DNA of 39,736 nt from Bdellovibrionales bacterium (GTDB lineage Bacteria > Bdellovibrionota > Bdellovibrionia > Bdellovibrionales > UBA1609): NCBI GenBank assembly GCA_020850475.1, contig JADZEO010000094.1:1-39736 (forward strand), written 5' to 3'. The translations under genes and the position numbers were made by a program. Of the stretch, positions 2 through 24,630 are shown in pieces (positions within the stretch are counted from its first letter, which is position 1; each line of letters opens with the position of its first letter). The notes under the pieces were generated by a model. It made no database searches, had not been told where the DNA came from, and saw nothing but the letters and a program-made list of their open reading frames with translations.

Positions 2-667
2 ATCCAGAGTCAAAAGGCCCGCAGGTCGGTCGGTCTTGAAGAAACTCTTGAGACTCTGGTGAACCACTATTTGGCCAAGTGCGATCCGCTGGAAGTGGCC
101 AAGCGACAACTTCTGCGCGGCAAACTCGGCCACGCACCAAAAGCAGATGAATCGCTCGGAGTTGAGGGTGGTGTTGCCCTCTCGGAGACTTTATCGGGAG
201 CTGCGCAATCAACGGCGGGACCAACGGCGCACCCAACTGCGGGACCAAGGGTGCGATCAACTGCGGATTCAGCCGCGAAATCAGCTGCGGAATCTCCTTC
301 GCAATCAACTGCGGAAAAAGTCGGCAATCAACAGGTCTTAAGACTTGTTGCCGAAATGGGTGCGTCAGACCGGACGCCATCGCCAGCGCCGCCGTCGCCA
401 CCGCCTGAGGCGACGACGCGGACACGGTCGAGGAGGGAGGGGCGCGGGCGGGAGAACAGGCGACCACTGCCTGCGGCGATCAAGCATCGGGTGTATTTGA
501 AATTTCAAGCCCGTTGCAGTCATGTTGATTCGCGAGGGGAGCGGTGTCGTGAAACCAAGTTTTTGGAAATTCACCATCTCAAACCAATTCGCTTGGGCGG
601 GAGTGATCGCTTCGAGAATCTCACTTTGCTTTGTTCGGGACACCACCAGGGGATTCACCTCGGGTAA
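2..667 (+). CDS. HNH endonuclease-like protein, 5' end cut off by the window
   Basis: The frame is open to the left edge, so the start lies upstream; the GTG at 59 is probably internal. The last 60 or so residues hold an HNH nuclease fold: a C..H..C cluster, then EIHH, then a downstream Asn and a C-x2-HH end (LLCSGHH). This matches the C-terminal HNH module of Bdellovibrio-type proteins, which pair a helical N-terminal part with a C-terminal HNH. The family should be a metal-dependent DNA nuclease; the target is unknown. Between the two parts is a low-complexity linker with nine tetrapeptides of the form [SP]-[TA]-A-x (bases 209-316). A Pro/Arg-rich stretch follows before the HNH. The gene ends 13 bases before a hexanucleotide repeat array. 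I am sure of the HNH domain and unsure of the biological role. Confidence 0.8.
209..316 (+). repeat. In-frame 12-bp tandem repeat in the HNH gene linker
   Basis: Nine consecutive 12-base units encode tetrapeptides [32 protein letters not shown] and STAE. The DNA core of a unit is close to tcaactgcggga, with diverged copies. The unit length is a multiple of three, so copy-number change would lengthen or shorten the linker without breaking the frame. Confidence 0.8.
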
Positions 668-680
668 GTGGGTCCACCCC

Positions 681-836
681 GACACCGATTCTGACTCTGA
701 CTCAGACTCTGACTCTGACACTGACGCCGACACCGACGCTGACACTGACACTGACACTGACACTGACACTGACGCCGACACCGACTCTGACTCTGACGCT
801 GACGCCGACGCCGACACCGACTCCCACGCCGACACA
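681..836. repeat. Hexanucleotide tandem repeat, 26 units of the type gacNCN
   Basis: Twenty-six contiguous 6-base units begin at 681, mostly gactct, gacact, gacgcc, gacacc or gacgct, with one unit starting gat and one starting cac. Read in phase on the plus strand they would give Asp-Ser/Thr/Ala dipeptides. The only plus-strand open frame covering them starts inside the HNH gene in another frame, so I treat the array as probably untranslated. Such arrays are prone to slippage. Confidence 0.9.
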
Positions 837-1139
837 GGTAGGGTCGCGCCCAAAGCGGTGGGGCCACACGAGCCAAAGGGGGATCACGCCAAAACAGGTG
901 AGACCACGCGAGCCAAGCGAGATCACAGGTATTTAGATGAGAGTGCGTCATGACCATCACAAAAATTGGGTTCACTGTGCAAGATGGCGATGAGTGAAAA
1001 TCGGGTAGCCAGGAATTGGGGGGTGGGCGATGATGGAGTGGTCCGGGCGGATAGTTGGTCTTGGTAGGTTGTTGGTCGCTGGTGGATGGTTAAACTGGCG
1101 GGCGAGGGGGACACTTTTGAGGCCCCAAGGAGAGAACAG
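837..1139. other. Spacer without a recognisable gene
   Basis: About 300 bases between the hexanucleotide array and the membrane protein gene. The first 90 bases contain degenerate copies of a motif like gaccacgcgagccaag. The rest is G-rich on the plus strand. I see no convincing promoter, terminator or RNA gene, only the ribosome binding site of the next gene at 1127-1134. Confidence 0.5.
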
Positions 1140-13663: not shown

Positions 13664-13694
13664 AATTCCCCACCCCGGTTAGGGTTGGGGAATT
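13664..13694 (-). terminator. Strong hairpin across the vWA gene stop codon
   Basis: aattcccca (13664-13672) pairs with the complement in tggggaatt (13686-13694), and after one mismatch three more C-G pairs extend the stem; the loop holds the stop codon. It lies between the vWA gene and the next gene of the set. No T tract follows, so it may be a weak terminator, a processing site or a stability element that sets unequal expression. Confidence 0.5.
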
Positions 13695-15532
13695 TCGACT
13701 TGCCAGGTGATGGTTATTTTATCGAGGGGTCGCGGCTCAAAAAGGCGACCTTGCACAGGAGTATCCGACGGGAGAATGAGAACCTCGTTGGTTTTTTCAT
13801 CAAAAACAATTCGATACGACTCAGGCGGAACCTTGGTCCCGTCAGCGCGCTCGATCGTGACTTCGACCAAGGCGCGAGGGCGATCACTGCCTTCGGGTGT
13901 GACAATGGCGACGCGTTCGCTTGCGGGGATTTGAAACTTGTCAATGTAGCGGAGCGCGTGGGTGGTGAACTTACCCAAGAATTCCATTGCAACATCAAAG
14001 TTTCCAAGCGCCATGTCCATCGCGGTGGAACCGGTCAGTGCCATCAGTTCCAAATAGCCGCGTCCGATTTCGTTTTCGTCAAAATACTGGTCGGTGCCTT
14101 TTTCGTGGGGCACGGTCGCAAGATTGGTGTAAACGATTCCGGTGGCGCGCATGGGTTGCTCACCTTTGAATTCACGCAAAGCCTCGTACACCGTGCGCTC
14201 CGGCACTTCGCCGAGGGCCGGGCAGTACTTTTTGTGAGCTTCGACTTCGATCGGGTCAAAGCCCTTGATGCCGTTGAATTCGACAGCTTTGCGATTTTTC
14301 GGGTGGTAGCGTTCATCATATGATGGTTGTTCACCGGGCTTATACTTGTAGCAAATGTCATTTTCGTCAGCGACAAAGATGACCATCAAAGCGGCATTGG
14401 CGCGCATGAACTCATCCATCGACTTGAGGGTTTGCGCCTGGCTGCCCTTAAGGAAGTTGTACAAGCTCAAGAGTCCCAACTCACCGGCGTCGTTGCCTTT
14501 CTCGGCTGGGACCTTCTTCATCTTTTCAACCAAGGCCTTGGTGATTTGCTCCAGGGTCATGGTATCTCGACCCTTATTGCCGAGGACGAGGCGATCGCGC
14601 CCATTGATCGCAAACAATTTGCCACCATGGGGGCTGTCGGGACTGTGCGCTGGCAAAACGCCAATGCGATAACTGGTGCCGTTCTCGCCGCCCGGCAATT
14701 GACGGATGAGTCGCGGCAGTTGCTCGACGATCCACTTGCGCTCGTGGAAAATCGACGTCGAGGTATCAACAACAAATAGTAAGTCGACTTCGGTCGTCAC
14801 CGGTCCTTCGGGTTGGCGGAACTCGAGGTGCTTGGACTGGTACACTGGTGCCGGAGGCGGTGGCGGTGGCGGGGGCGGAACGGGTGCGGGCGCCACTTCC
14901 GCAGGACACGGAGGGCGATTCGGACAATCTTCCACCAGCGGGCGCTCGCCGCGGTCACAAGGATCGACGGGAGGCGGTTGCTCACAAGGATTAACTGGGG
15001 CCACGGGCGCCGGGGCCGGTGCCGGGGGAGGAGGCGGAGGCGCCGGGGCCGCAACTGGCGCTGGCGCAGGCGGTACAGCCGGTTGCGGACGGCAATCAGG
15101 CCGTCGGCAAGTATCGATCACTTCCTCTCCTCTATATATTACGACTCGCGTCTGGGCTGCAGCCACTGTCGGTGGGTGCGCGCTGGTATCAAAGATAGGG
15201 CGCACCGGCTGGCTGGCGCCGGTAACCACGGTTGGGGCGTCGGGAACTTCATGACCACCACCGCGAGGATCCGCCGGACTTTGAGTTGGCAAAACAATTG
15301 GGCTGGCAGAGCCCGTGTTAGCGGGGCGTACAGGAGCGGGCGGAGTGCGTTGGGGTTGTACCGGGACAGGTCCGGGAGGAGCTGAGTCCTGATCCGGCTG
15401 AACTTTGGGAACGCGAGGCGCCCCTTCTTTTTTTGTCATCTTGGCCTTCTGGCAGGCCGGAAGCGCCAACAAAGTCACTCCGAGCATCAAGCTCAAGAGC
15501 CACACGGCACGACGATGTTTGACCGATCCCAT
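13679..15532 (-). CDS. Lipoprotein with Pro/Ala-rich stalk and von Willebrand factor A domain
   Basis: A 617-residue protein. The lipobox is L-P-A-C27. Residues about 35-230 are a Pro/Ala-rich stalk with polyproline runs and several C-x3-5-C pairs (for example at 183-209). From about 248 comes a vWA domain with the MIDAS motif D-T-S-T-S at 256-260 and a later D-A-G-E-L-G-L-L-S-L segment, then an acidic FVADENDIC strand. The last 100 residues form a separate beta-rich domain. vWA domains bind protein partners through a metal. The protein should be outer-membrane anchored with a long reach. The start at 15532 is chosen because AAGGAG lies six to seven bases upstream; the ATG at 15547 precedes that site. 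Confidence 0.88.
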   Translation of the reverse strand: MGSVKHRRAVWLLSLMLGVTLLALPACQKAKMTKKEGAPRVPKVQPDQDSAPPGPVPVQPQRTPPAPVRPANTGSASPIVLPTQSPADPRGGGHEVPDAPTVVTGASQPVRPIFDTSAHPPTVAAAQTRVVIYRGEEVIDTCRRPDCRPQPAVPPAPAPVAAPAPPPPPPAPAPAPVAPVNPCEQPPPVDPCDRGERPLVEDCPNRPPCPAEVAPAPVPPPPPPPPPAPVYQSKHLEFRQPEGPVTTEVDLLFVVDTSTSIFHERKWIVEQLPRLIRQLPGGENGTSYRIGVLPAHSPDSPHGGKLFAINGRDRLVLGNKGRDTMTLEQITKALVEKMKKVPAEKGNDAGELGLLSLYNFLKGSQAQTLKSMDEFMRANAALMVIFVADENDICYKYKPGEQPSYDERYHPKNRKAVEFNGIKGFDPIEVEAHKKYCPALGEVPERTVYEALREFKGEQPMRATGIVYTNLATVPHEKGTDQYFDENEIGRGYLELMALTGSTAMDMALGNFDVAMEFLGKFTTHALRYIDKFQIPASERVAIVTPEGSDRPRALVEVTIERADGTKVPPESYRIVFDEKTNEVLILPSDTPVQGRLFEPRPLDKITITWQVEIPQP

Positions 15533-15863
15533 AGGGAACTCCTTCATTAACCAACACTTTTTAGGCCACTTCGCTCTCTCAATAGAAAAAAGGACACGAG
15601 TGGTTAAGCTGTGCTCACTGCAAAGTCAGGGCTCATTTAGGGAGTCGGTGCCATCAAAAAAATAGATTAAAATCAAATACTTACCGATTACCCAAGGAAT
15701 AGGGTTAAATTAGGGGGTGTTGAATTTTGAGACGAACTGCCGCCGAAGGTCACCTCGACCTAGAGAGGGATTCGCTCATTCAGTGCACGGGATGAACAGG
15801 TTTGTTGACCCTCCTCGAGCCTCTACCTATCGTGAAAGAAACCGCTAAGTGGGGAGGTTCGCT
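15533..15863. other. Divergent spacer between the vWA lipoprotein gene and a small exported protein gene
   Basis: About 330 bases. The central part (15650-15720) is AT-rich. A good promoter for the plus-strand gene lies at 15805-15833. I found no convincing promoter for the minus-strand vWA gene and no small gene or RNA. Confidence 0.5.
15805..15833 (+). promoter_or_regulatory. Sigma-70-like promoter of the small exported protein gene
   Basis: TTGACC at 15805-15810 and TATCGT at 15828-15833 are separated by exactly 17 bases, five and four of six to consensus. A start site near 15840 would leave a leader of about 25 bases containing the ribosome binding site. Confidence 0.55.
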
Positions 15864-17214: not shown

Positions 17215-19287
17215 TCAGCGCCCGTCGCGCAGAGCCGCGCACACCCGCTGCAAGGCCAAGTTCACTCCCCGCGTGGGGCAATTGCGCTCGGTGGGTTTGA
17301 CTTGGCCCTCAGTGAGGGGATTGCCATTGGCGAACAGGCCTTGCAACTGGGGCGGCCGCCCCAGCGGAGAAAAGTCCTGGATCTGATTGCCTGCCAAGAT
17401 CAGTCGTTCCAGGTGAGGAAAGTGATGAACCGCTTGGGCAAAGACGCTCACGTCGGTAATGCCGTTGTCGTTGGCCTCGAGGCGAACCAGTTCCCGCATA
17501 CCCTTGAGAAAACCAAGCTTGCCAATACCGGTGTCGCCGAAGTCCAGAACGCGCAACTCCGTGAAAGTTGCCAACACGCCCAGGCTGTGGCGGAGAGGGT
17601 TTTTGTTGATGGCGAGTTCCTGAAGGCTCGGCCACCGGCCGCCGGCCAAAAAGGCCAGGGAGTCGAGTTGGTTGTTTGAGACATTTAGATTCTGCAACTG
17701 GCGTAAGGCTTTGAGTGACGGCAGTTGGGCCAATTGATTGTAGGAGAGATCAAGTTCTTTGAGTCGCCCCAGCTCGCTCACCACGGCCACCTCAGTTAAT
17801 TTTGCGGCCGAGACCATGAGTCCTTCGAGTTGCGTCAGCCCACGCAAAGGCGACAAGTCAGAGAGGGGGTTACTTGAAATGTCGAGTCGGCGCAGCTGGC
17901 GAAAGTTGCGAATAAACTCGAGGTCTGAGAGCCCCACGTGGTTGAGCTTGAGCGACGCCAATCGGTCGGCTAAGGGTTTTAAGTCCTCGGGCTTCTTAAG
18001 GGGTGAGCGAATGAGGCTCAGGCTTTCCAGCTGAGGAGCGGTGAGAAGCAGAGGTAGCCCTAGTTTTTCCAGATCCTGGCGCTCACTCAACTGCAAACTC
18101 TTAAGGCGTGGCAAAGTGGTGAGTGGGGCGAGCGAATCCAAATCACTTTCGGCGTTAAACGCCAGCTCGGTGATGCCGCCGAGAAGTTCCTCGACTCGTT
18201 CGCAGTTGAGAAACAAATCCCGCTCGGACTCGTGGGGGACTTTGCGCTTGATGGCTTCCAACACCAGAGTGCGAGCCGTCAGCCAACCTGGCTCATCGAG
18301 CGCGGTGTCTTGGCACCAATCTTTGAAACGGCGTTTGGGCGAGTGCCCAAGGCGCGGTGGGGGTGGCGGCGTAGGGTTCCAGGAGCTCTGAGGGAGTCGG
18401 CGCTCGAAGGTTTGTTCAATCCAGTCAACGTAATGACCGGCAAAGCCGTAGAGAATTTCGCCTTGATCGCAATTGGCCTTGAGCGGAAACAGCGGGTCGG
18501 GAGTTTTCTGTAGCGCCCGCGGCGTGAGGGCCACATCAAAGCCGTTGGTAACGCCCGCGATCGCCCAGGTGGTGGGGCCACCCGGCGGGCTTGAGGGAAC
18601 GGGAAAGTACGCGGGCCCACCGGAGTCCCCATGACAGGCCCCTTGTCCGGGCTGGGCTTGAATGAAGAGCAAGTTCTGAAAAAACGTCGACAGCAAATAT
18701 TCTTTGAGTTCGACATCAATAAAAAACAGCTGCCCGGCCACCACCTCGGTAAGTGAGGTCGCCCGATTGCCAAAGCCAGCCAGCCGCAGAGGTTGGCGAG
18801 GGGCCAAGGCCTCGCGGTTTCGCAAAATTTCGAGAGGCCGAAATCGCGGAAGATTGGGGTCAGCACCGTCTTGATTGGGCAAGGCACCGGCAAATTGCAC
18901 AACTGCGATATCGAGGTTAGGAAAATAGCTGGTCCAATCGCTCGACCCGGCCACTTCGATGCGACTCACTTCTCGTAGGAGAGAGGGCTGCAAATGATCG
19001 GTGTCAGGCCCAAAATAGACTTTAATCGACTTTTGATCGCGGCCGGCCACGCAGTGTTTGGCGGTGAGAATGAGATCACTGGCAATGATAGAACCCGTGC
19101 AAAAAACCCGCGAGTAATTGCCCGTGAAGGCCACAAACGCCACGGTGTTGAATTGCCCGGGATGATCGCGCCCCTCTAAACCTTGCGGGACGGGTTGGCC
19201 TCCCACCATGGCCTGGGTGCTAGTGCTTGTAGCCAGCAAAACCACCAAGGCGGCCTTGCAAGCTAAAAGTGGAGAGAGAATTTTCAC
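17215..19287 (-). CDS. Exported trypsin-like serine protease fused to leucine-rich repeats
   Basis: A 690-residue protein. A signal peptide ends near T-Q-A26, directly before M-V-G-G, which occupies the place of the I-V-G-G N-terminus of mature trypsins. The protease domain (27-295) has the triad His78 in TAKHC, Asp126 in LDIAVVQF and Ser222 in GDSGGP. A Pro-rich linker (298-318) leads to about ten internalin-like leucine-rich repeats of 20-23 residues (about 365-660; for example L-K-E-L-D-L-S-Y-N-Q-L). A Cys-containing cap ends the protein. Signal peptidase cleavage alone could yield the active N-terminus. The start is GTG at 19287 after TTGAGG. It is convergent with the gene at 16797. Confidence 0.9.
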   Translation of the reverse strand: MKILSPLLACKAALVVLLATSTSTQAMVGGQPVPQGLEGRDHPGQFNTVAFVAFTGNYSRVFCTGSIIASDLILTAKHCVAGRDQKSIKVYFGPDTDHLQPSLLREVSRIEVAGSSDWTSYFPNLDIAVVQFAGALPNQDGADPNLPRFRPLEILRNREALAPRQPLRLAGFGNRATSLTEVVAGQLFFIDVELKEYLLSTFFQNLLFIQAQPGQGACHGDSGGPAYFPVPSSPPGGPTTWAIAGVTNGFDVALTPRALQKTPDPLFPLKANCDQGEILYGFAGHYVDWIEQTFERRLPQSSWNPTPPPPPRLGHSPKRRFKDWCQDTALDEPGWLTARTLVLEAIKRKVPHESERDLFLNCERVEELLGGITELAFNAESDLDSLAPLTTLPRLKSLQLSERQDLEKLGLPLLLTAPQLESLSLIRSPLKKPEDLKPLADRLASLKLNHVGLSDLEFIRNFRQLRRLDISSNPLSDLSPLRGLTQLEGLMVSAAKLTEVAVVSELGRLKELDLSYNQLAQLPSLKALRQLQNLNVSNNQLDSLAFLAGGRWPSLQELAINKNPLRHSLGVLATFTELRVLDFGDTGIGKLGFLKGMRELVRLEANDNGITDVSVFAQAVHHFPHLERLILAGNQIQDFSPLGRPPQLQGLFANGNPLTEGQVKPTERNCPTRGVNLALQRVCAALRDGR

Positions 19288-20730: not shown

Positions 20731-21013
20731 CTCAATAGAGAGGGAGCAAAACCCAAGCCAAGGCCTCTAGTAAAAAGCCCTTAGTTTCAATGACTTAGAC
20801 GTAGCAAGAAGGGGTCTAAAGCGAGTCTTTGGGGGTAGTGACGAGAATCGCTGACAGGTGGCTAGGTTATGCACCCTTTCGTGGGGGTAACAAGCGAAGC
20901 GTAACGCACACGGGCCAAACCCCTAGTTTTCCCTGGAAGCCGCTTCCAGATGGGCGTTAGGATTGTGTTGCGAAGTCGGCAAATGATCAAGGTGCGCGAC
21001 CCTTAGTGATTCA
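20731..21013. other. Divergent spacer with hairpin-rich segment, no gene seen
   Basis: Separates the exported coiled-coil gene (minus) from the six-repeat Cys gene (plus). No open frame or clear promoter. The hairpin cluster at 20866-20959 is listed separately; a very strong ribosome binding site AAGGAGG begins at 21014. Confidence 0.5.
20866..20959 (+). ncRNA. Candidate structured leader RNA upstream of the Cys-repeat gene
   Basis: Three features can pair on the plus strand. First, gtta at 20866-20869 with taac at 20888-20891, with C-G pairs inside. Second, an outer stem taacgc (20902-20907) with gcgtta (20954-20959). Third, nested in the second, a perfect 7-bp hairpin ctggaag-ccg-cttccag (20933-20949). 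The segment acgcacacgggccaaacc recalls the start of the GEMM (c-di-GMP-I) riboswitch, but the rest of that consensus is missing. I treat it as an unassigned structured element; it could also be read on the minus strand. Confidence 0.4.
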
Positions 21014-21028
21014 AGGAGGAAGTAACTC

Positions 21029-21541
21029 ATGAAGATATTAGCAGTGTTGTCTCTGATACTAGGTCTGGGTTGGACAACTTCGGCGCGGGCGTCGATGGAT
21101 GTAACTTGTGTTCACGATGATTGTCTCACCTATGGTTGGAAAATTCGCGACACCAAGAGCTTGGGTCGGGGATTTGTCGAATGTGTCGACGAGGATTGTA
21201 AGAAAAAGGGCTGGTACGAGACCTCCATGAGTGGGCAAACCTTTTTGAACGAGTGCGCTCGAGGTGGCTGCTGGGTTGAGGGTTGGGACGCCGTGGATCG
21301 CGCGGGTCGGCTGTTGGCTTCGGCCCGTTGTGAGTCGGGTGGACCCGAGCATCCTGAATCTGATTGCCTCACCTTTGGCTGGACCGTTCGGCAAGCCAAT
21401 GGCATGGTCGCCCACATTAGTTGTCTCGAACACAACTGTCGCGAGAAAGGTTGGGAAATCACTCTCCGCGGAGCGCCTCCGCAGTTGGCGCACTGTAAAC
21501 CGGGCGGGTGTTTTACTGAAGGATGGCGTCTGTACTACTGA
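21029..21541 (+). CDS. Exported protein of six C-x4-C-x3-G-W repeats
   Basis: A 170-residue protein with signal peptide cleaved near A-R-A21. The whole mature chain is six repeats of 24-25 residues. Cys pairs lie at 27/32, 52/57, 76/81, 101/113, 132/137 and 156/161, each followed after three residues by Gly-Trp (36-37, 61-62, 85-86, 117-118, 141-142, 165-166). Repeat four has a seven-residue insertion between its Cys. Twelve Cys suggest six disulfides or a metal-bound ladder in the periplasm or outside. I know no named family with this signature. A strong ribosome binding site (AAGGAGG, 21014-21020) suggests high expression. The end overlaps tilS by 19 bases. Confidence 0.85.
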   Translation: MKILAVLSLILGLGWTTSARASMDVTCVHDDCLTYGWKIRDTKSLGRGFVECVDEDCKKKGWYETSMSGQTFLNECARGGCWVEGWDAVDRAGRLLASARCESGGPEHPESDCLTFGWTVRQANGMVAHISCLEHNCREKGWEITLRGAPPQLAHCKPGGCFTEGWRLYY

Positions 21542-22578
21542 AAAAACCAAAACGTGCTTTGGATGCCACCGAACATCGGGTGGCGCAAACCCTACGGCCC
21601 CTGAATCTCGACGGGGCCGTTTTGCTTTTGGCGGTCTCCGGCGGACTGGATTCCATCGTCCTCTTGAACCTCTTGGTTCGTCTGCAAAAGCTGCTCAAAG
21701 TCCAAGTGGTCGTCGCCCACGTTCATCATGGGAAGACCTCCGGGGCGGGCGCAAGCTTTCGTCGCCGGGCCTGGTCCTTGGTGGCCGGTGCGGCTGCAAG
21801 TCATGGGCTGCGTTTTTTCTCGAATGTCGAGGGCGAGGCGGAGGGGCGGCGTCGGTCCCTGCGATTCAGCATGAGTCCGCCGCGAGTCTTAAAGTCAGAG
21901 GCCGATTTGCGAGAGTTTCGTTATTCCTTGTTGCGCACCTGGCAGAGAGAACTCGAACACACTTTAGCCACTCCGGTGTGGCTGGTAACGGCCCACCACT
22001 TGGATGATCTGCTCGAGACGCGTCTGCTGCGGCTGGTGCGTGGAACGGGGGGACAAGGACTTGAGGCGATGGCCCTCCAAGAGGGTGAAACCTTGCGTCC
22101 GCTGCTGGCGCTTTCTCGTCAGGAACTGCTGCACTACGCGCGCCAGCGACGTTTGAAGTGGGTGGAAGACCCCAGCAATGCCCAGCTCGATCCTCTGCGC
22201 AATTGGCTCCGACATCGTTGGCTCCCAGCGCTAGAGTCTCGCCGGCGCGGCTCCTTGGTCAATTTGGCTCGGTCTTTAGAACAGATTGTGGGTGAACTTA
22301 AAACCACTTCGAGTCGAGTTGTCTCACCGATCCAAGGCGATTATCTGGACCGACAAAAGTACCTGGAGTTGAGTCGAGAAGAGAAGAAACGCGCGGTCGC
22401 GTCTTACTTACGCGAGTTGGGAGTGCGCGGTTACGGCCAAAGTCATGTTGAAGAAATCACCAAGCGCCTTGACAGTTCTCGTCGGGAACTCAAGTTTCGA
22501 GTATTGAAGTGGGACTGGGTTGTCAATGCCGAGCAAATCAGAGCCATCCGGCCTGAGGGTGAGTCAGGAAACAATTGA
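21523..22578 (+). CDS. tilS: tRNA(Ile)-lysidine synthase
   Basis: A 351-residue N-type ATP pyrophosphatase that makes lysidine at position 34 of the CAU-anticodon isoleucine tRNA, so that it reads AUA. The PP-loop is S-G-G-L-D-S at residues 39-44, and the family's HVHHG, then TAHHLDDLLETRLLRL..G and LRPLL..SR segments follow in order. The C-terminal substrate-binding part is short, about 100 residues, so it is a compact TilS. The start at 21523 overlaps the end of the Cys-repeat gene, with GAAGG immediately before the ATG. It is followed by ftsH, an order (tilS-ftsH) seen widely in bacteria. Confidence 0.92.
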   Translation: MASVLLKKPKRALDATEHRVAQTLRPLNLDGAVLLLAVSGGLDSIVLLNLLVRLQKLLKVQVVVAHVHHGKTSGAGASFRRRAWSLVAGAAASHGLRFFSNVEGEAEGRRRSLRFSMSPPRVLKSEADLREFRYSLLRTWQRELEHTLATPVWLVTAHHLDDLLETRLLRLVRGTGGQGLEAMALQEGETLRPLLALSRQELLHYARQRRLKWVEDPSNAQLDPLRNWLRHRWLPALESRRRGSLVNLARSLEQIVGELKTTSSRVVSPIQGDYLDRQKYLELSREEKKRAVASYLRELGVRGYGQSHVEEITKRLDSSRRELKFRVLKWDWVVNAEQIRAIRPEGESGNN

Positions 22579-22644
22579 GGCCATTTCTCCTGAGTGATAT
22601 TCTTTAAGAGTGTCGTTCACGCCTTTGGGAAAGGACTAAGCCGG

Positions 22645-24630
22645 ATGCGTTCACCACAAAAAACCATGGCACTTTGGGCAATGTTGATCGTCGTCGCGAT
22701 CCTGTTGTTTCAGATGTACGAAACTCAGCGCCACACTTTGATTCGTGACTTTGACTACCCCAAGTTCCTGAAGGCCTTGGAAGCGAACGAGATTGAGTCT
22801 GTCACCTTCAACAAGGACACCGGCGAAATTGAAGGCGATATCAAGCCCGAGTTCAAAGACAAGTACGCTGGCCGCCACTTTCAGATCTTGGGTAACACCG
22901 ACTCGGAAGGTTTCAAAATCGTCCGGCAGCAAGGGATTACCCCAAAGTACATTGGCTCGGACAACTCCCTCATGACGTCGGTGTTTCTCAACTGGTTGCC
23001 GCTGATCATTATCATCGGGATGTTCATGTTTTTTATGCGGCAGATTCAGGTGGGCGGTGGCAAAGCCATGAGCTTTGGCAAAAGCCGCGCTCGTTTGCTG
23101 ACCGAAAACAAAAATAAAGTGACCTTTAAAGACGTGGCCGGCGTTGAAGAGGCCAAAGAAGATTTGCAGGAAATCGTCGCCTTCCTGAAGGAACCGAAGA
23201 AATTTACCCGTCTCGGCGGTCGCATTCCCAAAGGCGTCTTGCTGGTGGGCCCTCCCGGAACTGGTAAGACCTTGCTTGCCCGAGCGGTGGCCGGAGAAGC
23301 CAACGTGCCTTTTTTTACGATTTCTGGTTCCGACTTTGTCGAGATGTTCGTGGGCGTGGGCGCGAGCCGCGTGCGCGATTTGTTTGAGCAAGGCAAGAAG
23401 AACGCACCTTGTTTGATCTTCATCGATGAGATCGATGCGGTGGGACGTCATCGGGGAGCCGGAATGGGTGGCGGACATGACGAGCGCGAACAGACTCTCA
23501 ATCAATTATTGGTTGAGATGGATGGCTTTGAAAGCAACGAAGGCGTCATTTTAATTGCGGCCACGAACCGACCCGACGTGCTCGATCCAGCCTTGCTGCG
23601 ACCGGGGCGCTTTGATCGGCGCGTGGTGGTTAACAAGCCTGACCTCAAAGGCCGGCGCAAAATTTTGGAAGTTCATACCCGCAAAACGCCCCTTTCAACC
23701 GAAGTCGATCTTGATCGCATTGCGCGGGGAACTCCCGGGTTTTCTGGCGCGGATTTAGAGAACTTGGTGAATGAAGCAGCTCTCCAGGCGGCCCGCGATA
23801 ATAAACCTAAACTTGAGCAAGAGGACTTTGAGAAAGCCAAAGACAAAGTCATGATGGGTTCGGAGCGCAAGTCGATGGTGATTAGCGAAAAAGATCGTCG
23901 GATCACGGCTTACCACGAAGCCGGGCACACCTTAGTGGGTAAGAAGGTTCCGGAGCTTGATCCCATTCATAAGGTGACGATCATTCCGCGAGGCATGGCC
24001 TTAGGTCTAACCCAGACCTTGCCGGAAGAAGATCAGCTCAATCTTTCGAAGAAAAAAGCTGAAAGCATGATTGCCTTTTTATTCGGGGGTCGAGCAGCGG
24101 AAGAATTGATCTTTAATGACTTTACCACCGGTGCCGGTAACGACATCGAGCGAGCCACGGAGCTGGCGCGTCGCATGGTTTGCGAGTGGGGAATGAGTGA
24201 AAAACTGGGACCCTTGGCTCTCGAGCGGCGCGAAGGTCCGGTGTTTTTGGGAATGCAGTCGTCTCACCATCGCGACTACTCCGACGCCAAAGCCGAAGAG
24301 ATCGACAAAGAGGTCTATCGTCTGGTGGTTGAGGGCAACGAGTTGGCCAAGAAGGTGTTGCGCGACAACATTGATACACTTCATCGCATGGCGGAGTCGC
24401 TCCTGGAACATGAGACCATCGATGGCGAAGAGGTTGAGATTCTCGTCAAGGGTGGAAGCCTGCGCGACATTGACGATCGTCGAGGTTCCAAGCAGGAAAA
24501 ATTAGTTCAAGAAAGAAAAGCTGCCGAAGAAGAAGAGGCAAGGCGCAAAAAAGCCGAAGAGGATAAAGCGAAAGCAGGAGAGAGCGGTGACCGGGATCCA
24601 GTGGGTAATCCGGGCCCGGTAACGGCTTAA
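22645..24630 (+). CDS. ftsH: ATP-dependent zinc metalloprotease FtsH
   Basis: A 661-residue membrane protease that degrades damaged membrane proteins and selected cytoplasmic regulators. Visible in order are an N-terminal membrane helix (about 9-24), a periplasmic domain, a second helix (about 106-125), the AAA domain with Walker A G-P-P-G-T-G-K-T near 201, Walker B F-I-D-E-I-D-A, the second region of homology with R-P-G-R-F-D-R, and the zinc motif H-E-A-G-H near 424. The tail is a charged Lys/Glu coiled coil. The ATG at 22645 follows GGGAAAGGA; a GTG at 22594 would add 17 residues but has no good site. The next gene starts eight bases after the stop. Confidence 0.97.

What the first reader, a model, noticed from the sequence alone, without database searches (positions are those of the whole stretch)
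21029..21541. New-looking repeat family: six C-x4-C-x3-G-W modules in an exported protein
The entire mature protein is a regular ladder of Cys pairs each followed by Gly-Trp with 24-25 residue spacing. I know no described domain of this form. Its strong ribosome binding site implies abundance, possibly as a wall, matrix or toxin-like protein.
Basis: partly seen in the sequence, partly recalled or inferred. Interest (0 to 1): 0.65.

Follow-up and report, generated by a model that had tools for sequence, protein, structure and literature searches.

The report
Six-hairpin disulfide barrel protein family
The gene encodes a small exported protein of a previously undescribed family, found in Bdellovibrionota, Myxococcota and one phage contig, in which exactly six cysteine-paired hairpins are predicted to close into one compact barrel; its biological task is unknown but probably lies in the cell envelope.

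Summary
The ladder is real. The 170-aa ORF at 21029-21541 has a signal peptide and six Cys-pair/Gly-Trp modules. Five are strict C-x4-C-x3-G-W; module 4 has an enlarged loop (C-x11-C). A paralogue lies in the same genome, and 24 of 369 Bdellovibrionota genomes carry the family; a DNA-pattern scan found a second branch in Myxococcota lipoproteins and one copy on a phage contig. All 12 Cys and six module Gly are invariant in 32 aligned sequences, and all 44 aligned members have exactly six modules. No Pfam, NCBIfam or PDB sequence family matches. AlphaFold2 is very confident (pLDDT 97.3, pTM 0.88; independent Myxococcota model 91.6/0.80). Each module is a beta-hairpin led by a short Cys-bracketed turn. 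The best solved matches are closed 12-stranded barrels (TULP1, At5g01750, designed ZZ4), so I read it as a closed barrel, not an open ladder. In 12 genomes it sits directly before tilS-ftsH; in six the tilS ATG lies inside the last GGATGG (Gly-Trp) codons. Best reading: an exported, disulfide-stapled binding or scaffold barrel of the envelope. The fold is well supported; the function is inferred and weak. Abundance, wall-matrix and toxin roles are unsupported.

The parts
21013..21019 (+). Shine-Dalgarno AAGGAGG, 9 nt before the start codon
21029..21091 (+). signal peptide (residues 1-21, MKILAVLSLILGLGWTTSARA, AxA-type cleavage site)
   Evidence: sequence reading; n-region Lys, hydrophobic core, ARA; orthologues begin alike
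21092..21538 (+). mature protein, 149 aa, 12 Cys, six hairpin modules; predicted closed 12-stranded barrel
   Evidence: AlphaFold2 pLDDT 97.3, pTM 0.88; structure matches
21107..21139 (+). module 1 C27..W37 (CVHDDCLTYGW)
21182..21214 (+). module 2 C52..W62 (CVDEDCKKKGW)
21254..21286 (+). module 3 C76..W86 (CARGGCWVEGW)
21329..21382 (+). module 4 C101..W118 with enlarged Cys loop (CESGGPEHPESDCLTFGW); the loop varies in length in orthologues
21422..21454 (+). module 5 C132..W142 (CLEHNCREKGW)
21494..21526 (+). module 6 C156..W166 (CKPGGCFTEGW); its GGA-TGG codons contain the tilS ATG
21523..22578 (+). tilS-like gene (SGGxDS motif) overlapping the barrel gene by 19 bases
22594..24630 (+). ftsH-like gene, next in the conserved run

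Best explanation
The gene encodes an exported small globular protein whose mature part is one closed, antiparallel 12-stranded beta-barrel made of six repeated hairpins. Each module runs: strand, Cys, short turn, Cys, x3, Gly-Trp, strand, tight turn. The Cys pair probably staples the turn at one rim by a disulfide within the module, and the six Trp with the alternating apolar residues probably fill the barrel. The barrel needs six modules to close, which explains why the number never varies. It most likely acts as a rigid, oxidation-locked binding or scaffold module in the periplasm or at the outer surface (a lipid-anchored C-terminal domain in Myxococcota). In Bdellovibrionota it is co-expressed with tilS-ftsH because it heads that gene run, often with the tilS start inside its last Gly-Trp codons. 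Shown by tools: family, conservation, fixed six modules, hairpin fold confidence, amphipathic alternation, gene context. Inferred: disulfide pairing, complete closure, Trp core, location, binding role.
For: The AF2 model of the window protein has pLDDT 97.3 and pTM 0.88, with five models agreeing; an independent Myxococcota alignment gives the same hairpin repeat at 91.6/0.80. VIA-align on the window model: TULP1 Z 8.9, rmsd 3.9, 130 of 150 residues; At5g01750 Z 8.3, 116 residues; designed protein ZZ4 Z 7.0, 117; FapF porin Z 6.6, 120. The Myxococcota model's top hit is also ZZ4, Z 7.3, 107 residues, Foldseek prob 0.99. All 44 aligned members have six modules (in L051, L109 and L124 the sixth was counted by eye because it lacks the aromatic after Gly). 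Paralogues L019/L020 carry a coiled-coil insert of about 100 aa after module 5 and still end with module 6. Apolar side: W, W+2, C1-2 and C1-4; polar side: W+1, C1-1, C1-3. The two phyla's profiles align module for module, hhalign prob 99.5, E 4.5e-22. Signal peptide or lipobox in members; tilS-ftsH context in 12 genomes.
Against: Coordinates of the model could not be inspected, so closure, the position of Trp and Cys-Cys distances were not measured. No Foldseek hit has E below 0.001, and Z values near 7-9 are close to what unrelated models reach. For the Myxococcota model no solved chain reaches Z 8. Foldseek's top local hits are open MORN arrays. No functional partner is conserved outside the tilS context, and nothing tests binding.
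Confidence: 0.5

Rival explanations
1. It is an open, MORN-like array of stacked hairpins (a flat or twisted rod) that serves as a structural spacer or matrix protein.
For: Foldseek's best local hits are junctophilin and MORN1 arrays; the module is a hairpin of 24-25 residues with a Gly turn, as in MORN (PMC7725318).
Against: Superpositions on MORN arrays are poor over the full length (TM 0.20-0.26, rmsd 9-16 A), while closed barrels align over 107-130 residues. MORN arrays vary in length from 2 to over 20 repeats; here it is always six.
Confidence: 0.12
2. The Cys pairs bind metal or act as redox centres instead of forming structural disulfides, making it a periplasmic metal-binding or thiol protein.
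For: Twelve invariant Cys in pairs.
Against: C-x4-C is not a usual metal or thioredoxin-type motif (general knowledge). Exported proteins are normally oxidised. Each pair brackets a turn at the same place in every hairpin. No metal or redox gene is conserved nearby.
Confidence: 0.1
3. It is a hollow barrel that carries a hydrophobic ligand in the periplasm, as LolB, lipocalins or fatty-acid-binding proteins do.
For: Weak fold matches to LolB, LptC, LolA-like and lipid-binding barrels (Z 3.5-4.6); lipid-anchored forms in Myxococcota.
Against: Those matches are at background level. Six Trp plus apolar residues on one face probably fill the interior.
Confidence: 0.15
4. It is an effector in predation or phage conflict (prey-directed protein, or envelope protein that blocks phage entry).
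For: Found in lineages known for predation (Bdellovibrionota, Myxococcota). One phage contig with a large-terminase gene carries a copy.
Against: No toxin or effector domain and no immunity or secretion neighbour. Only 24 of 369 and 6 of 284 genomes have it. The commonest context is housekeeping (tilS-ftsH). Only one phage copy was found.
Confidence: 0.13

Closest known systems
MORN repeats (PF02493, PF07661; junctophilins, MORN1)
   Same: Repeats of 23-25 residues, each a beta-hairpin with a Gly turn and conserved aromatic; top local Foldseek hits
   Different: No GxG or YEGEW motif, no Pfam match, hhalign of both branches against a MORN protein negative; Cys pair in every linker; fixed six modules; not an extended array in the model
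Tubby-like 12-stranded barrels (TULP1, plant LURP1-related At5g01750, scramblases)
   Same: Full-length fold match of the window model, Z 8.9 and 8.3; 12 strands
   Different: No helix longer than 4 residues in the model, whereas the tubby-like barrel surrounds a buried helix; no sequence match; short hairpin repeats with Cys pairs
De novo designed protein ZZ4 (PDB 9lx4)
   Same: Best full-length match common to both models (Foldseek prob 0.87 and 0.99; Z 7.0 and 7.3)
   Different: A man-made protein, no ancestry; no description was found in the held library
Outer-membrane porins such as FapF
   Same: 12-stranded up-and-down barrel, Z 6.6
   Different: Strands of 3-7 residues and polar outward residues, too short and too polar to span a membrane

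Membership tests
MORN repeats | Match to Pfam MORN models PF02493 or PF07661 | tested here: not met
   No such match among the members of A1 and A3 at E up to 1, nor the window protein at E up to 10
MORN repeats | GxG at strand 1 and YEGEW at strand 2 (definition in PMC7725318) | tested here: not met
   Alignments show C-x4-C-x3-G-W and no GxG/YEGEW; hhalign against a MORN protein E 0.6-0.9
MORN repeats | Tandem beta-hairpins of about 23 residues | tested here: met
   Model secondary structure
Tubby-like superfamily | Closed 12-stranded barrel | tested here: inconclusive
   TULP1 Z 8.9 over 130 of 150 residues, but Z near background and coordinates not inspected
Tubby-like superfamily | Buried central helix in the barrel | tested here: not met
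   DSSP of both models shows no helix over 4 residues
Tubby-like superfamily | Sequence match to Tub, LOR or scramblase models | tested here: not met
   Absent from Pfam scans
Outer-membrane beta-barrel | Strands of 9 or more residues with apolar outward face | tested here: not met
   Strands of 3-7 residues; outward positions W+1, C1-1, C1-3 polar
Pentapeptide repeat proteins | Profile-level similarity (the single-sequence PDB hit 2xt4 had E 0.014) | tested here: not met
   Profile search of PDB sequences with 14 orthologues finds none
New six-module family (Bdellovibrionota and Myxococcota) | Export signal, 12 invariant module Cys, six modules | tested here: met

The most novel reading that the evidence does not exclude
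An undescribed natural barrel family: six disulfide-stapled hairpins close a 12-stranded barrel whose core is filled by six tryptophans in place of the buried helix of tubby-like barrels. Predatory lineages and a phage use it as an envelope recognition or exclusion module. In Bdellovibrionota its last Gly-Trp codons double as the tilS start codon, coupling it to an essential tRNA-modification gene.
Probability: 0.2. Interest if true: 0.7.

Novelty: new variant of a known kind. Interest (0 to 1): 0.5.

Why it matters
It adds an unrecorded protein family, with strict anatomy in two phyla, to largely uncharacterised envelope proteomes. It offers a naturally symmetric, disulfide-locked barrel that closes from repeated hairpins. 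Natural closed barrels with such clear internal repeats are useful for questions about how barrels evolve from hairpins and as a design scaffold. The shared Gly-Trp/ATG codons are a testable case of overlapping coding constraint and translational coupling.

Tried and rejected
Many pattern hits (Streptomyces, Paenibacillus, Planctomycetes and others) are low-complexity or wrong-frame matches and were discarded by in-frame module counts. A Cys-rich Bacteroidales protein (L074) has a different repeat. The weak Bdellovibrionota hit G064 (E 6e-4) overlaps, in another frame, a 622-aa ORF that looks like a membrane transporter; judged false. Sub-threshold Pfam hits in Myxococcota (AcrIIA4, Tcp10_C, Beta_helix) lie on short stretches of a repetitive sequence below curated cut-offs; rejected. 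PHROG hits at E 6e-4 and 8e-4 rest on single short stretches; rejected. MORN ancestry tested by hhalign, negative (only one MORN sequence was available, so remote ancestry is not excluded). MORN_2 search in relatives found nothing, but its control also stayed silent. A duplicated three-module origin (ABC-ABC) is suggested: pairing n with n+3 is the best of 15 pairings by mean BLOSUM (23.8 against 21.9 for the next), but this is weak. Rfam found nothing in the upstream region. No phage or plasmid record matches. Literature searches found no description of the family.

Full report
WHAT IS THERE. The ORF at 21029-21541 (170 aa) starts 9 nt after AAGGAGG, has a signal peptide ending in ARA, and a mature part of 149 aa with 12 Cys and six Gly-Trp. 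Five modules read C-x4-C-x3-G-W; module 4 reads C-x11-C-x3-G-W. Spacing of first Cys residues is 25, 24, 25, 31, 24. Shuffling the mature protein 200,000 times never gave more than two strict motifs.

A REAL FAMILY. The same genome has a second copy (C17:2929-3378, 38% identity), just upstream of an amidase-like gene in the same direction (reading). Profile search gives 24 of 369 Bdellovibrionota genomes; one of these, G064, I judge false. In 14 orthologues and paralogues all 12 Cys and the six module Gly are invariant; the same holds for 32 sequences. dN/dS of close pairs is 0.05-0.19. No Pfam, NCBIfam or PDB sequence family matches, by single sequence or profile.

A SECOND PHYLUM. A DNA pattern for two consecutive modules, allowing any codon, was run over the species-level genome collection. 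After checking frames the true hits fall in Bdellovibrionota (including Halobacteriovorax-type MAGs) and Myxococcota (Nannocystis, Polyangium, Paraliomyxa, Sandaracinaceae and others). The Myxococcota proteins carry the six modules at the C terminus. Many begin with a lipobox-like signal (for example LLSCSTLVAC) followed by a linker that reads as helical or low-complexity; they add two Cys at the end. 6 of 284 sampled Myxococcota genomes have it, one of them with a weak, interrupted match. The profiles of the two branches align module 1 to 1 through 6 to 6, prob 99.5, E 4.5e-22 (internal repeats inflate such scores). In the tree the Myxococcota copies form one clade (support 99/99). One IMG/VR contig (L149) carries a six-module copy; the contig has a large-terminase match, E 1e-31, and a virion-type transglycosylase, so it is most likely a phage.

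ALWAYS SIX. Every one of 44 aligned members has six modules (three whose last module lacks the aromatic after Gly were counted by eye). Two paralogues with a coiled-coil insert of about 100 aa after module 5 still end in module 6. Open repeat arrays drift in number; a fixed number fits a structure that closes on itself.

FOLD. AlphaFold2 on the window protein with 32 family sequences gives mean pLDDT 97.3 and pTM 0.88; an alignment of 19 Myxococcota domains gives 91.6 and 0.80. Both show the same unit: strand, short turn or 3-residue helix between the two Cys, Gly-Trp, strand, tight turn, strand. Foldseek finds only local similarity to MORN hairpins, with poor full-length superposition. VIA-align of the window model against solved chains ranks closed barrels on top: TULP1 (Z 8.9, rmsd 3.9, 130 residues), At5g01750 (8.3, 3.6, 116), designed protein ZZ4 (7.0, 3.8, 117), FapF porin (6.6, 3.4, 120). 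The Myxococcota model also puts ZZ4 first (7.3, 3.2, 107). These Z values are only just above background, so closure rests on the sum of fold matches, strand count and fixed module number. Coordinates could not be read here.

INSIDE AND OUTSIDE. Around each module, W, W+2, C1-2 and C1-4 are apolar or small while W+1, C1-1 and C1-3 are polar; in Myxococcota W+3 is also polar and W+4 apolar. Such alternation is that of strands with one buried face. The six Trp would lie on the buried face and could fill the barrel, the place taken by a helix in tubby-like barrels (a buried helix in the scramblase barrel is described in PMC11335299). This is inference.

GENE CONTEXT. In the window and 11 other genomes the gene is followed in the same direction by tilS and ftsH, then cdaA, ybbR and glmM where the contig reaches (in L064 the contig ends inside tilS). 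In nine of the twelve the tilS reading frame has a start candidate overlapping the barrel gene. In six (window, L132, L055, L133, L114, L083) a tilS ATG sits inside the GGATGG that encodes the last Gly-Trp; in L059 a TTG sits in GGTTGG. Copies outside this context have no shared neighbours beyond near-identical contigs.

WHAT IT PROBABLY DOES. No neighbour or domain fixes the function. An exported, compact, oxidised barrel with variable outward residues, and a lipid-anchored form, most simply suggests an envelope binding or scaffold module. Carrier, metal, predation-effector and phage-exclusion roles remain possible and are listed as rivals. The link to tilS-ftsH is probably one of transcription and translation, not of shared biochemistry.

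VERDICT. The reading 'new family' is supported; 'ladder, wall or toxin, abundant' is not. Novel is the family and its predicted barrel built from six Cys-paired hairpins; the architecture itself, a 12-stranded barrel of hairpins, is known.

Noticed in passing
window 21523-21541 and L132, L055, L133, L114, L083: The tilS ATG lies inside the GGATGG codons of the last Gly-Trp of the upstream gene; a conserved overlap that may couple translation.
   Followed up: partly
L019, L020 (G022): Two adjacent paralogues of the family with a coiled-coil insert of about 100 aa between modules 5 and 6.
   Followed up: partly
L149:10445-10867 (-): Six-module family member on a phage contig with a large-terminase gene; possible phage-borne envelope protein.
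   Followed up: partly
L002:1492-1992 (-): Same-genome paralogue lies directly upstream of an amidase_3-like gene in the same direction.
   Followed up: no
window 17215-19287 (-): Signal peptide, trypsin-like serine protease and a leucine-rich-repeat tail in one ORF (read by eye).
   Followed up: no
window 522-953: Tandem DNA repeat read as (DS/DT)n on + and SV/SA/SE runs on the other strand.
   Followed up: no
window 13679-15547 (-): Proline-rich lipoprotein with a von Willebrand-like domain, ORF 622 aa (read by eye).
   Followed up: no
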